64,000 bases of DNA from the NCBI RefSeq assembly GCF_000178155.2, contig NZ_ADKM02000031.1, positions 1 to 64,000 on the forward strand, given 5' to 3'. The position numbers and the translations under genes were made by a program. The stretch comes from Hominimerdicola alba 8 (lineage in GTDB: Bacteria > Bacillota > Clostridia > Oscillospirales > Ruminococcaceae). The notes below the pieces were generated by a model. The model did no database searches, had not been told where the DNA came from, and saw nothing but the letters and a program-made list of their open reading frames with translations. Of the stretch, positions 31,219-46,262 are shown one piece after another (position 1 is the stretch's first letter; every line of letters begins with the position of its first letter).

Positions 31219-31247
31219 TTGACATTTTATTGGATATAATGTATAAT
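31219..31247 (+). promoter_or_regulatory. Promoter of the cystatin-like gene
   Basis: TTGACA-N17-TATAAT, with a second overlapping TATAAT inside the spacer. The leader is about 80 nt and T/A-rich. Confidence 0.8.
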
Positions 31248-31334
31248 ATATTCACATCGATGTAAACCAAATATTTCTTTATTTAATTTTTATCATAATT
31301 AAATTAAAACCATTATTTTTTAGGAGGGCTTATT

Positions 31335-32246
31335 ATGAGCATTGAAAACACAACTGTTAAAGGCGGCTGGACTATCACTCATGGAGATACAAGCATTGAA
31401 AAACACCCTGATGCACTTGCTGCATTTGAAAAGGCTACAGCAGGATTTATAGGCGTAAAATTTACACCTGTAGCTCTTCTTGCAACACAGATAGTTTCGG
31501 GAAAGAATTATGCCATACTCTGTAAAGCTACCCCCGCAACACTGGATCCTGCAACTACTCTTAAAGTTGTGATCGTTTATGAAGATCTTAATGGCAATGC
31601 AACTATTACAGGTATAAAAGATGTATTAGGTGCTGATTATCCTGTATTCGCAGCTACCTGCGATTGTTCAGCAAACGATAATATCGTTCTCGGCGGCTGG
31701 AATATCACTCTTGGTGATCCGAGCATTGATAAGCATCCTGATGCACTTGCTGCAATTGAAAAGGCTACAGCGGGTATGTTAGGTGCAAAATATGAACCTA
31801 TTGCTTTACTTGGCACTCAGATAGTTGCAGGAAAGAATTACTGTATCCTCTGCAGGATCACCCCTGTTACACTTGATCCTAAGCCGACTATGAAGCTCGT
31901 TTATGTATATGAAGATACAGAAGGTAACGCTGTTATTACAGAAATCAAGGAAATAATTGGCGCTCCTGTTCCGGGTGGATTTATTGCCAATGACGGTGCT
32001 ACAGACCTTAACAGCAATCCTGAAGTAAAAAATGCTTTTGAAAAGGCTACAAAGGATCTCTTGGGTGTAGACTATGAGCCTATCGCTTATCTTGGCTATC
32101 AGATAGTTGCAGGCAAGAATTATCTTATCCTTTGTGAAAGCAAGATAGTTGTTCCGGATCCCATCCCTTCTCTTACACTTGTAACTGTCTATGAAGATCT
32201 TGACGGCAACTGCAAGATCATAAATACCGAACCTGTAGTCCTTTAA
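31335..32246 (+). CDS. Three-domain cystatin-like protein
   Basis: 303 residues made of three tandem ~100-residue repeats (about 9-100, 116-207, 213-303). The first two begin with GGW (the third with GGF), and all contain a helix (ALAAFEKATAG), then QIV(S/A)GKNY, then a strand ending YEDL(N/D)GN-type. The Gly-rich start and Q-x-V-x-G loop are the two hallmarks of cystatins (inhibitors of papain-like cysteine proteases), so a cystatin fold is likely. There is no signal peptide, so it acts in the cytoplasm unless released by lysis. Strong TAGGAGG ribosome site. It is monocistronic. Whether it inhibits a protease is an inference. Confidence 0.7.
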   Translation: MSIENTTVKGGWTITHGDTSIEKHPDALAAFEKATAGFIGVKFTPVALLATQIVSGKNYAILCKATPATLDPATTLKVVIVYEDLNGNATITGIKDVLGADYPVFAATCDCSANDNIVLGGWNITLGDPSIDKHPDALAAIEKATAGMLGAKYEPIALLGTQIVAGKNYCILCRITPVTLDPKPTMKLVYVYEDTEGNAVITEIKEIIGAPVPGGFIANDGATDLNSNPEVKNAFEKATKDLLGVDYEPIAYLGYQIVAGKNYLILCESKIVVPDPIPSLTLVTVYEDLDGNCKIINTEPVVL

Positions 32247-32275
32247 GTTTTAAGATATAAGCTGAAAATGTAAAT

Positions 32276-32320
32276 GTTCCCCCGATCTATGGCTTTATGT
32301 TACAGATTCGGGGGATCTTT
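32276..32320 (+). terminator. Terminator of the cystatin-like gene
   Basis: CCCCCGA-TCT/AGA-TTCGGGGG hairpin followed by T-rich sequence. Confidence 0.8.
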
Positions 32321-32500
32321 TTATGAATATGATATGTGGTCATTCCGCTGACATATTGTGCTTAACAGACTTTCTGCGACTATTGACCATAGTCGGCGGT
32401 TTTCTTTACATGTGTGAACGCATGGAAAGAAAACATCTCATAACTGTTTCTTGTTATACCTTTATTCCCGGTGGTGTATTAAAATGGTTAACCATATATT

Positions 32501-43620: not shown

Positions 43621-43763
43621 CACATTTCCATAATACAGGTATATGTAGCGTTATTAACAACACGGCAAGCCCGCTGGCACACTACATCGCAAAACTTCCT
43701 CGTTATAAATAAATACGATCAGTGTACCACAGGTGCAGCCACATTAAGATCGGAGGATATGTT

Positions 43764-46262
43764 ATGAAGAAAAAAACCAAACGCGCTGCCGCTGTATTGC
43801 TGTGTGCTTTGCTTGCGGCGTCTTCTGTCCCGTTGGCAGATGCACCGTCGGGCGCACTTACAGCTTCGGCGGCTTCATCAAAGCTCGTGGCTTTTCCTGG
43901 CGCAGTCGGCGGCGGCAAATATGCCACAGGCGGTCGCGGCGGCGAGGTCTACCATGTCACCAACCTGAATGACAGCGGCGCAGGTTCGCTGCGTGATGCT
44001 GTCAGCAAGTCGGGTCGTATCGTAGTATTCGATGTCAGCGGCACTATCACACTAAGCAGCAACATAGTATGCAGCAGCAACATTACCATCGCGGGGCAGA
44101 CCGCACCCGGCGGTTCCGGCATAACCCTTAAGGACTACAAGTTCGGCATGGGCGGCGATAATATCATCGTGCGCTATCTCAGTTCCCGTCCCGGTCCCGA
44201 TAAGGCAACAAGTTCGGGCAACGATGCTTGGGGCGGCGCAAAAGGCTCAAACTCCATCGTTGACCACTGCTCACTTGGCTGGACGACTGACGAACAGTGG
44301 GGTCTTTACTCAAATAACGACCACTACACTGTGCAGTATTCGGTCATCGGTCCTGCGAATTCGTGGGGCGGTCATGTCAAGGGCGTTCACGGTTTCGGTC
44401 TTATGATGGGCAGAAGCAACCTTACATTCGACCACAACCTTATCTGTCATAACGTTTCCCGAAACTTTCGCGGAAAAGTCGTAGGCACTGAAACTGCCGA
44501 TTTTACCAACAATGTCATCTATGACTGGGGCTACCAGACAGCCTACGGCACTATAGGTCATGTGAATTATGTGAATAATACCCTTAAAGCAGGTAACTCC
44601 ACAGCAAGCGGCTATCACTATGTACAGGTGTCGGCAAACGATAATTTCAAGCTGTATCTGAGCGGCAACCGCATACTCAATAAAGACGGTTCCTACCGCA
44701 ACAGCGAAAATGATAACTGGTCTGCCATATCCTACGGCAGCAGCGATAAAAACCGCAGCAATACCGAGTCAACCACGCCTTTCACCATCCTGTCTGACAG
44801 CGGCGAGAACATTTCTTCTGCGCTCAACTGTGAAAGCGCGGCGGCATCTTATGACCACGTTATCAGCTTTGCAGGCAACGGCATCTCTCCCGACAAGCGC
44901 ACCGCCATTGACAAACAGTGCGCTCAGGAAACTGCAAACGGCACAGGCTCATGCAGTGGTACCGACCCATACAGCGCCGACCAGTCAGAACTGAGCAAAT
45001 ATAACATTCAGTGCGGCGTTAAGTACGAATACCCATCTGCTGTGACCCGCAAAGAGATAACCGATAATGACAACGACGGCATGGACGACAGCTGGGAACT
45101 GGCAAGAGGTCTTGACCCCACCGACTCCACCGACTATAAGGGCGACTACTGCGGTCAGGGCTATATGAATATCGAGTACTATATAAATGACCTTACCGTT
45201 GACTCGTTCCCTGAGGGCGTTGTGACGCTCTCACCTGCTACAGGTGATGCGAAATACGGCGCTGTTATGGATACTTCCGTAAAATATGAGATAACCGACA
45301 GCAATGGCGGCGCATTACAGGCAAATACCGCAGGCTGGCGCCTTGCAGAGGCGGGAAACGGCTATTACCGCATCATATCCGCTGACAGCGGAATCGACCT
45401 TTCAAGCGGTGAACAGTACAAGTTCGTCAGAAAAGGCGCAGGCTATGTCATCTATACCAGATCATCAGATGATAAACAGTGTGTCGGCGGTGACGGCACT
45501 GTCTGGAATGTCACTGTCATGGTCGAACCTCTCAGCGGCGAACTGTTCAAAGAACTGAAAGTACTGGATACACCTCGCAGTTCTTTCTGGAAGATAGAAA
45601 AAGGTCTTTCAGCAGGCGCACTGCTTTACGGTGACCGTGATGTGGTGTATACCTCGATCCCCGACAGCTTAACAGGTGCCGAATATCTTGTGACTTCCTG
45701 CGACTCCAAACTGACAGACTCCGACCTTGCAACATTCAAAGCGGGTAAGAATATGACAGTCTATGTCGCACTTGACAACAGAGTAACGGCGCGCCCCGCA
45801 TGGCTCTCAAACTACACTAAAACAGGCATGACTGTTCAGAACAGCGGTTCTGTGACATTTGACATCTACCAACAGGAAGTCAAAAGTGGTACTACCGTCA
45901 CTCTCGGCACAAACGGTCAGAGTTCGGGCTGTGTGAATTATACCGTGTTTGCAACAGCTTCCGCTGTTCCCGCATCTGAGGTATATCCCGAAATAACAAG
46001 CGTAGAGTACAGCGAGCAGTTCCACCAGATAAGATTTACATGGAAGCCTGTTGACGGCGCTTCAAACTACGGCATCGCAGTATATCTCGCAGGCAAGTGG
46101 AGAATTCAGACTAAGAACATCTCAGCATCAACACTCAGCTATACCACCCCGAAAAACCTCACACCCGGCAAGACCTACAAGGTAGCTGTTGCCGCTAAGG
46201 TCAACGGCGAATGGACAGCCGCAGAATCGATCAAACATGCCGTTACTGTCACTGTAAGATAG
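43764..46262 (+). CDS. Secreted pectate lyase-like protein (PL1 fold) with CBM37-type module
   Basis: 832 residues. Signal peptide about 1-37. A right-handed beta-helix of the pectate lyase superfamily follows: AFPGAVGGGKYATGGRGGEV and VTNLNDSGAGSLRDAV are standard N-terminal PL1 signatures, with ITIAGQTAPG and the later DHCSLGW and RNFRGK regions (candidate Ca2+ site and catalytic Arg). A middle part carries a calcium-type DNDNDGMDDSWEL segment, then a less clear domain, and the last ~90 residues are a CBM37-type module matching 3-1136. A CGGAGG site precedes the ATG. Likely degrades pectin outside the cell. Confidence 0.88.
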   Translation: MKKKTKRAAAVLLCALLAASSVPLADAPSGALTASAASSKLVAFPGAVGGGKYATGGRGGEVYHVTNLNDSGAGSLRDAVSKSGRIVVFDVSGTITLSSNIVCSSNITIAGQTAPGGSGITLKDYKFGMGGDNIIVRYLSSRPGPDKATSSGNDAWGGAKGSNSIVDHCSLGWTTDEQWGLYSNNDHYTVQYSVIGPANSWGGHVKGVHGFGLMMGRSNLTFDHNLICHNVSRNFRGKVVGTETADFTNNVIYDWGYQTAYGTIGHVNYVNNTLKAGNSTASGYHYVQVSANDNFKLYLSGNRILNKDGSYRNSENDNWSAISYGSSDKNRSNTESTTPFTILSDSGENISSALNCESAAASYDHVISFAGNGISPDKRTAIDKQCAQETANGTGSCSGTDPYSADQSELSKYNIQCGVKYEYPSAVTRKEITDNDNDGMDDSWELARGLDPTDSTDYKGDYCGQGYMNIEYYINDLTVDSFPEGVVTLSPATGDAKYGAVMDTSVKYEITDSNGGALQANTAGWRLAEAGNGYYRIISADSGIDLSSGEQYKFVRKGAGYVIYTRSSDDKQCVGGDGTVWNVTVMVEPLSGELFKELKVLDTPRSSFWKIEKGLSAGALLYGDRDVVYTSIPDSLTGAEYLVTSCDSKLTDSDLATFKAGKNMTVYVALDNRVTARPAWLSNYTKTGMTVQNSGSVTFDIYQQEVKSGTTVTLGTNGQSSGCVNYTVFATASAVPASEVYPEITSVEYSEQFHQIRFTWKPVDGASNYGIAVYLAGKWRIQTKNISASTLSYTTPKNLTPGKTYKVAVAAKVNGEWTAAESIKHAVTVTVR

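What the first reader, a model, noticed from the sequence alone, without database searches (positions are those of the whole stretch)
31335..32246. Cytoplasmic protein with three tandem cystatin-like domains
Each ~100-residue repeat has an N-terminal Gly (GGW/GGF) and QIV(S/A)GKNY, matching the two contact sites of cystatins. Multi-domain cystatins in bacteria are rare in my knowledge. A strong promoter suggests high expression. There is no signal peptide, so the target would be an internal papain-like protease or a protease met after lysis.
Basis: partly seen in the sequence, partly recalled or inferred. Interest (0 to 1): 0.6.

Follow-up and report, generated by a model that had tools for sequence, protein, structure and literature searches.

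The report
Three-headed bacterial cystatin-type protease inhibitor
A bacterium related to Ruminococcus albus makes a protein built from three copies of the cystatin fold, the fold with which animals and plants block papain-like protein-cutting enzymes; it carries no export signal and no papain-like enzyme was found in its own genome, so its target is probably another organism's enzyme.

Summary
ORF 31335-32246 encodes three tandem repeats, each with an N-terminal Gly-Gly and a QIV[S/A]GKNY loop in register. It is homologous to cystatins: hhalign of 27 bacterial domains with 8 eukaryotic cystatin fragments gives probability 96.4, E 1.4e-9; 100 column-shuffled controls reach at most 4.2. AlphaFold2 gives a confident cystatin fold (pLDDT 93.5); the 12 listed structural matches with Z 8 or more are all cystatins. 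Pfam's score is below cut-off, NCBIfam has nothing. Two R. albus orthologues show purifying selection, different neighbourhoods, and the same consensus promoter plus palindrome. Of 36 distinct proteins of the family, 29 look exported, mostly with two domains; this one does not. No C1A or C1B peptidase was found in its genome. Most likely it is a multivalent inhibitor of foreign papain-like peptidases, perhaps those of grazing ciliates met after engulfment; inhibition and target are inferred. Bacterial stefins and one triple bacterial cystatin are in print, so this is a new variant of a known kind.

The parts
31219..31247 (+). sigma-70-type promoter TTGACA-17-TATAAT, 12 of 12 matches
   Evidence: conserved upstream of the L002 and L003 orthologues while the sequence further up does not align
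31254..31263 (.). palindrome ACATCGATGT just after the -10 box, possible repressor operator
   Evidence: present just after the -10 box in L002 and L003 too; TATAAT followed within 2-20 bases by this exact palindrome occurs only at this place in the own genome. Operator role is inference
31322..31327 (+). ribosome binding site AGGAGG
   Evidence: read directly
31335..32246 (+). gene for a 303-aa protein of three cystatin-type domains, no signal peptide
31356..31625 (+). domain 1 (GGW at 31362-31370; QIVSG at 31488-31502)
   Evidence: profile hit E 3.1e-36
31629..31694 (+). flexible linker between domains 1 and 2 (residues 99-120)
   Evidence: pLDDT under 50; highest dN of the segments compared in each of three orthologue pairs (residues 101-117)
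31686..31955 (+). domain 2 (GGW at 31692-31700; QIVAG at 31818-31832)
   Evidence: profile hit E 2.2e-37
31968..32237 (+). domain 3 (GGF at 31974-31982; QIVAG at 32100-32114)
   Evidence: profile hit E 2.7e-35
32278..32315 (+). probable intrinsic terminator hairpin followed by a T-rich stretch
   Evidence: -22.6 kcal/mol for 32264-32328, z -3.79 against shuffles; not listed by the simple terminator scan; the stretch also aligns in L002 and L003

Best explanation
The gene makes a three-headed inhibitor of papain-like (C1A) cysteine peptidases, homologous to cystatins and stefins. Each domain is a wedge: the N-terminal segment ending in Gly-Gly and the QIV[S/A]G hairpin loop enter the active-site cleft of the enzyme and block it reversibly, so one molecule could hold up to three enzymes. 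Shown: homology, predicted fold, in-register contact sites in all three domains, purifying selection, no signal peptide, own promoter. Inferred: that it inhibits, and what it inhibits. The target is most likely a foreign enzyme, because no C1A or C1B peptidase was found in the genome and most relatives look exported. For this cytoplasmic form the likeliest encounter is after the cell is broken open, for example in the food vacuole of a rumen ciliate, with plant papain-like enzymes, or in a lysed biofilm.
For: Homology: hhalign of A1 (27 bacterial domains) with A4 (8 tick and fluke cystatin fragments) gives probability 96.4, E 1.4e-9 over 55 columns. 100 column shuffles reach probability 4.2 at most; four cystatins not taken from the A1 search give 95.2; the six R. 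albus-type rows alone give 67.8. A single-domain relative, L014, finds a Fasciola stefin by plain phmmer at E 7e-5 and is itself found by tblastn from the window protein at E 5.4e-7. Fold: pLDDT 93.5, pTM 0.84; VIA-align rows 1-12 (Z 9.8 to 8.0) are cystatins, among them 1stf and 3ima solved with papain; the full-length model's top match is potato multicystatin 4lzi, Z 10.0. Sites: first Gly invariant, second Gly and Q, V, G, N of QxVxGxN at 90% or more in 27 domains. Selection: dN/dS about 0.07-0.09 in three orthologue pairs (from the values). Foreign target: no PF00112 and no PF03051 hit in the own genome. Ciliate route: Entodinium caudatum transcripts include abundant cathepsins B and F (PMC6925433, passages).
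Against: No inhibition was measured. Pfam Cystatin scores 16 bits against a cut-off of 22.2; Foldseek had no hit at E 1e-3 or below (best 1.4e-3); the best profile hit in the PDB is only E 0.0036. The PW hairpin, the third contact of classical cystatins, is absent. In the order sample the domain and PF00112 co-occur more than chance gives (8 genomes with both, p 0.015), which could mean own-enzyme control in other species. In mixed rumen fluid the cysteine-protease inhibitor iodoacetamide affected protozoa least of three inhibitors, and it did not significantly lower total counts (PMC6908469). E. caudatum itself expresses a cystatin-B-like protein. The genome is a 136-contig draft, so a peptidase could be missed.
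Confidence: 0.65

Rival explanations
1. The fold is kept but the job has changed: the domains bind something other than a C1 peptidase (another protease class or a protein partner), as is known for SQAPI and monellin (PMC2784779) and, from recall, latexin and CRES.
For: SQAPI, latexin, monellin and CRES are among the structural matches. A Cys after the QxVxG strand is invariant in 27 of 27 domains, a feature I do not recall from eukaryotic cystatins. No C1 target was found in the own genome.
Against: The positions that contact papain in cystatins are among the most conserved in 27 domains and are kept in all three repeats of all three orthologues. A scaffold role would not demand that.
Confidence: 0.15
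2. It is an inhibitor as in the main explanation, but it is exported without a classical signal, or released by routine lysis, and protects the cell's extracellular enzymes from community proteases (overlaps with the main explanation).
For: 29 of 36 distinct family proteins look exported: 22 lipoprotein-like and 4 secreted-like by regular expression, 3 more by eye. Domain 3 groups with domain 2 of secreted proteins of the same genus (97/93). R. flavefaciens cellulosomes include putative peptidases and serpins (PMC3573020, passages).
Against: No signal peptide by eye in any of three orthologues. Cytosolic-looking single-domain relatives also exist (L010, L014, L028), so the cytosol may be the real site.
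Confidence: 0.12
3. It is an antidote in the cytosol against injected papain-fold toxins of rival bacteria.
For: No signal peptide; free-standing gene in three different neighbourhoods; a palindrome at the promoter suggests control by a repressor.
Against: PADLOC best E 0.016 to a restriction enzyme model; no match in phage records; no toxin among the neighbours scanned.
Confidence: 0.06
4. It regulates one of the cell's own cysteine peptidases of a family not searched here.
For: Cytosolic by sequence; purifying selection; in the order sample the domain co-occurs with PF00112.
Against: C1A and C1B were not found in the own genome; none of 6 genomes of the genus with the domain has PF00112. Other peptidase families were not searched.
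Confidence: 0.07

Closest known systems
Stefins (type-1 cystatins), e.g. human stefin B with papain (1stf), Dictyostelium cystatin A2 (8gqq)
   Same: Fold (Z 8.1 and 9.8), N-terminal Gly, QxVxG loop, no signal peptide; no PW hairpin (that stefins lack PW is recalled)
   Different: Three domains instead of one; an invariant Cys in the third strand; Pfam score below cut-off
Potato multicystatin (4lzi)
   Same: Tandem cystatin domains in one chain; best match of the full-length model, Z 10.0 over 251 residues
   Different: rmsd 12.6, so the arrangement of domains is not shared; 20% identity; flexible linker between domains 1 and 2 here
Bacterial stefins and cystatins of Kordis and Turk 2009 (PMC2784779), including the triple-cystatin Polaribacter protein EAQ42446
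   Same: Bacterial, patchy; stefins reported in Clostridia; triplication has a precedent (passages)
   Different: Ruminococcus is not named in the main text (0 occurrences); the Polaribacter protein is fused to another gene; no direct sequence comparison was made here
Exported two-domain proteins of the same order
   Same: Same domain family by profile; domain 3 groups with domain 2 of the secreted ones of the genus
   Different: Export signal; two domains; some with long C-terminal regions

Membership tests
Cystatin superfamily | One helix packed across an antiparallel sheet, order beta-alpha-beta-beta-beta-beta | tested here: met
   AlphaFold2 model pLDDT 93.5 with that order; the 12 listed VIA-align rows with Z 8.0 or more are cystatins
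Cystatin superfamily | Conserved N-terminal Gly | tested here: met
   First Gly of GG in 27 of 27 domains, second at 90% or more
Cystatin superfamily | QxVxG first hairpin loop | tested here: met
   QIVSG, QIVAG, QIVAG in the three repeats; Q, V and G at 90% or more in 27 domains
Cystatin superfamily | Sequence homology to known cystatins | tested here: met
   hhalign probability 96.4, E 1.4e-9 over 55 columns, i.e. up to the strand after QxVxG; shuffles at most 4.2
Pfam PF00031 model | Score over the curated cut-off (a detection limit, not a biological feature) | tested here: not met
   16 bits against 22.2 for the window protein; 2 of 27 domains match at E 0.1 or below
Type-2 cystatins | PW second hairpin and signal peptide | tested here: not met
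   The only two Trp residues are in the GGW motifs; no signal peptide by eye. PW region and signal peptide as features: PMC2784779 passages
Stefins (type 1) | Gly plus QxVxG, no signal peptide | tested here: met
   features from PMC2784779 passages and the start of the PMC4390278 abstract
Stefins (type 1) | Single domain of about 100 residues (size recalled) | tested here: not met
   Three domains in 303 residues; so it is stefin-like, not a canonical stefin
Functional C1 peptidase inhibitor | Tight reversible inhibition of papain-like peptidases | not testable with these tools
   No assay possible

The most novel reading that the evidence does not exclude
The cell stocks its cytoplasm with a three-headed cystatin that acts only after the cell has been eaten and lysed, jamming the cathepsins of grazing rumen ciliates: a post-mortem, kin-protecting defence against predation, derived from an exported two-domain inhibitor by duplication of one domain and loss of the signal peptide.
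Probability: 0.17. Interest if true: 0.75.

Novelty: new variant of a known kind. Interest (0 to 1): 0.45.

Why it matters
It exposes a bacterial branch of the cystatin superfamily that standard libraries pass over: the window protein is below the Pfam cut-off and has no convincing NCBIfam match, 7 of 8 further relatives have no Cystatin hit at E 0.1 and the eighth is below the cut-off, and an Aureibacter relative is annotated 'hypothetical protein'. The domain is in 21 of 394 sampled genomes of the order, the own one included. A multivalent cytosolic inhibitor in a relative of R. albus whose genome shows no matching protease raises a testable question: do gut bacteria arm themselves against the proteases of predators and competitors? 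If so it bears on ciliate grazing in the rumen, and it offers small cysteine-protease inhibitors.

Tried and rejected
Chance resemblance of a short motif: rejected, since profile homology with shuffle controls and the predicted fold agree.

Chorismate mutase AroH, 5 of the 22 sequences listed (E 0.023-0.16): taken as chance, because none is among the 50 structural rows listed.

MetN and F420-reductase matches of the single sequence (E 0.46-0.66): chance level.

Phage or plasmid origin: tblastn against phage records gave no match; the two plasmid matches are distant Bacteroidota relatives; PHROGs (best E 0.027) and PADLOC (best E 0.016) gave nothing convincing. A first scan of viral contigs with the window protein found no relative; with A1 it found four, two of them near a contig end, so perhaps host flanks; not followed. 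Foldseek against viral models: best a Catovirus cystatin-domain protein, E 0.016.

Mutual exclusion with C1 peptidases inside the genus (domain in 6 of 29, PF00112 in 17 of 29, none with both; p 0.0019): not relied on, because the six genomes may form one clade and no correction for kinship was made. In the order sample the association is the other way (p 0.015), also uncorrected, and several of its PF00112 matches cover only a short end of the model.

Operon logic: the neighbours scanned (LuxS, Trep_Strep, TetR, FeoB, FeoA, alpha/beta hydrolase, P-type ATPase) suggest no function, and the two orthologues sit elsewhere (within the fetched flanks of about 4-6 kb). In G722 a cystatin lipoprotein and a dockerin-bearing C1 peptidase lie about 3 kb apart, with htpG-like and peptidyl-prolyl-isomerase-like genes between (named by eye); one case proves nothing.

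The PF00031 search of 398 genomes gave 0, but its control rang nowhere, so it says nothing about absence.

Signal-peptide calls are by regular expression plus reading, not by a trained predictor. Some of the 22 'lipoprotein' calls (L006, L007, L015, L017) may be ordinary secreted proteins; L008, L093 and L094, called 'none', look exported by eye; L103 is a fragment. Dropped before the count: duplicates by their last 60 residues, L044 and L057 (cut copies of counted proteins); L029 (a 44-aa frame) never entered. L105-L110, found later, are not in the count of 36.

Full report
OBSERVATION. The ORF at 31335-32246 (+) is 303 aa long; its ATG, behind AGGAGG, is the first start codon after the upstream stop, so no longer start adds a signal peptide. 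A family profile finds three domains, at 31356-31625, 31686-31955 and 31968-32237, E 3.1e-36, 2.2e-37 and 2.7e-35 (these domains are part of the profile). Domain 1 is 66% identical to domain 2 and 43% to domain 3. The repeats start GGW, GGW and GGF and carry QIVSGKNY, QIVAGKNY and QIVAGKNY in register. A 12-of-12 sigma-70 promoter lies at 31219-31247. A hairpin with a T-rich tail follows the gene (z -3.79), though the simple terminator scan did not list it.

HOMOLOGY. Pfam Cystatin scores 16 bits, E 0.015, below its cut-off of 22.2; NCBIfam has nothing convincing; single-sequence phmmer against solved structures finds only chance hits. With 27 domains (A1) the best solved structure is a tick cystatin at E 0.0036; of 22 sequences listed at E up to 10, 16 are cystatins or stefins by name, 5 chorismate mutases and 1 a sodium channel. 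Profile-profile comparison of A1 with 8 tick and fluke cystatin fragments (A4) gives probability 96.4, E 1.4e-9 over 55 columns, from the Gly-Gly to the strand after QxVxG. Controls: 100 column-shuffled copies of A1 reach probability 4.2 and score 17.5 at most, against 96.4 and 50.0; reversed A1 gives 0.1; four cystatins whose letters were not taken give 95.2; A1 without L014 gives 96.1; the six R. albus-type rows alone give 67.8, E 4.9e-5. A single-domain relative without a signal peptide, L014, bridges the gap: the window protein finds it at E 5.4e-7 and it finds a Fasciola stefin by phmmer at E 7e-5. Accepted cystatins are about as far from one another (fragment of the Fasciola stefin to stefin A chains, E 6e-4 to 1.4e-3; fragment of a tick cystatin to cystatin C, best E 0.014).

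FOLD. AlphaFold2 on domain 1 with A1: pLDDT 93.5, pTM 0.84, order E-H-E-E-E-E. VIA-align: Z 9.8 with Dictyostelium cystatin A2, 8.6 tarocystatin (with papain), 8.5 potato multicystatin, 8.1 human stefin B (with papain); the 12 listed rows with Z 8.0 or more are cystatins (that 1yvb_I is the cystatin chain of a falcipain complex is recalled). Foldseek: best E 1.4e-3, probability 1.00, no hit at E 1e-3 or below. Full length: pLDDT 81.6, pTM 0.61; three such domains; residues 1-7 and 99-120 under 50, no such break between domains 2 and 3; best match potato multicystatin, Z 10.0 over 251 residues with rmsd 12.6, so the arrangement of domains is not shared.

CONTACT SITES AND SELECTION. In 27 domains the first Gly, a Pro and a Cys are invariant; the second Gly and the Q, V, G and N of QxVxGxN are at 90% or more. 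The classical PW hairpin is absent (the only two Trp are in GGW). The start of the PMC4390278 abstract gives G and QxVxG as the conserved marks of stefins (listing). Between the window gene and the orthologues in L002 and L003 (90 and 89% identical) dN and dS are 0.058 and 0.83 (window-L002), 0.067 and 0.75 (window-L003), 0.033 and 0.41 (L002-L003); the linker has the highest dN in each pair.

GENE AS A UNIT. Upstream, -35, -10 and the palindrome ACATCGATGT are shared by the three orthologues, while the sequence further up does not align. TATAAT followed within 2-20 bases by this exact palindrome occurs only at this place in the own genome. Among ORFs of 100 aa or more in the fetched flanks (about 4-6 kb), at E 1e-15, only this gene and its antisense frames match between the window and L002 or L003 at the same place; one L002 ORF partly matches two distant window ORFs. 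So the gene seems to travel with its own promoter and is not tied to LuxS, Trep_Strep, TetR or FeoAB near it. That the palindrome is an operator is inference.

RELATIVES. Own genome included, 12 of 100 relatives have a match, 6 of 29 in the genus, 21 of 394 in a sample of the order and 4 of 398 in a sample of the phylum. Of 36 distinct proteins a regular expression called 22 lipoprotein-like, 4 secreted-like and 10 none. Of the 10, three look exported by eye (L008, L093, L094), one is a fragment (L103) and six lack a signal: the window protein and its two orthologues, and the single-domain L010, L014 and L028. 27 of the 36 have two detected domains. Later finds, not in that count: two-domain proteins without an apparent signal in Aureibacter tunicatorum (plasmid, annotated hypothetical) and in L107, and single-domain ones in L105, L106 and L110. 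In a domain tree of 69 rows with few columns and an unsettled bootstrap, domain 3 groups with domain 2 of six secreted proteins of the genus and of L027 (97/93), and domains 1 and 2 group together (99/99); the root is unknown. This fits an exported two-domain ancestor, duplication of the first domain and loss of the signal peptide; it does not prove it.

TARGET. No PF00112 or PF03051 was found in the own genome, a draft of 136 contigs, 98.78% complete; the searches rang in 3 and 2 of 14 control genomes. In the genus 17 of 29 genomes have PF00112, 6 of 29 have the domain, none has both (p 0.0019). In the order sample 67 of 394 have PF00112 and 21 of 394 the domain, 8 both (odds ratio 3.3, p 0.015). 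Of nine genomes with the domain outside the genus that were searched apart, four have PF00112. None of these tests corrects for kinship. The rumen offers foreign targets: Entodinium caudatum has abundant transcripts for cathepsins B and F, and also for a cystatin-B-like protein (PMC6925433, passages); rumen protozoa depend on lysozyme and peptidases to digest engulfed cells (PMC6908469, passages). Against: in that study iodoacetamide, the cysteine-protease inhibitor, did least to the protozoa and did not significantly lower total counts, though the authors cite it as effective on E. caudatum in monoculture. That this organism lives in a rumen is inferred from its kinship with R. albus.

MECHANISM. 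I commit to a multivalent, reversible cystatin-type inhibitor of foreign papain-like peptidases (0.65 for the whole statement). Shown: homology, predicted fold, contact sites, selection, no signal peptide. Inferred: inhibition, stoichiometry, target, and encounter after lysis.

KNOWN OR NEW. Bacterial stefins and cystatins are in print, stefins also in Clostridia, and a triple-cystatin Polaribacter protein (PMC2784779, passages). Ruminococcus has 0 occurrences in its main text. Searches for cystatin with stefin and prokaryotes (13 papers), Ruminococcus albus with cystatin, rumen terms, bacterial cystatin or stefin phrases, gut lipoprotein terms, predation terms and Ruminococcus albus with papain, dockerin, cysteine (12 of 27 listed) showed, by title and start of abstract, no description of this protein. 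Verdict: new variant of a known kind, interest 0.45.

Noticed in passing
31254-31263: A 10-bp palindrome right after the -10 box, conserved in two orthologues whose upstream flanks are unrelated; looks like a private operator.
   Followed up: partly
L020, L021, L022, L009, L011, L080: Two-domain cystatin-like lipoproteins share a C-terminal region (about 130 residues, with an ISGDYNEY-type stretch); the L021 protein gave no Pfam match.
   Followed up: no
L108:1-3246: A cystatin-type domain sits at the end of a protein of more than 1000 residues with a Ser/Pro/Thr-rich linker on an IMG/VR contig.
   Followed up: no
L104:2521-8026: A cystatin-like lipoprotein and a papain-family protease with a dockerin lie about 3 kb apart in one genome.
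   Followed up: partly
window residues C63, C173, C267 (A1 column of C57): One Cys in the third strand is invariant in 27 of 27 domains of exported and cytosolic relatives; its role is unexplained.
   Followed up: no
43713-46259: An open frame of 849 codons without a Pfam match; parts of an ORF beside the L002 orthologue resemble it and another window ORF (3-1133).
   Followed up: no
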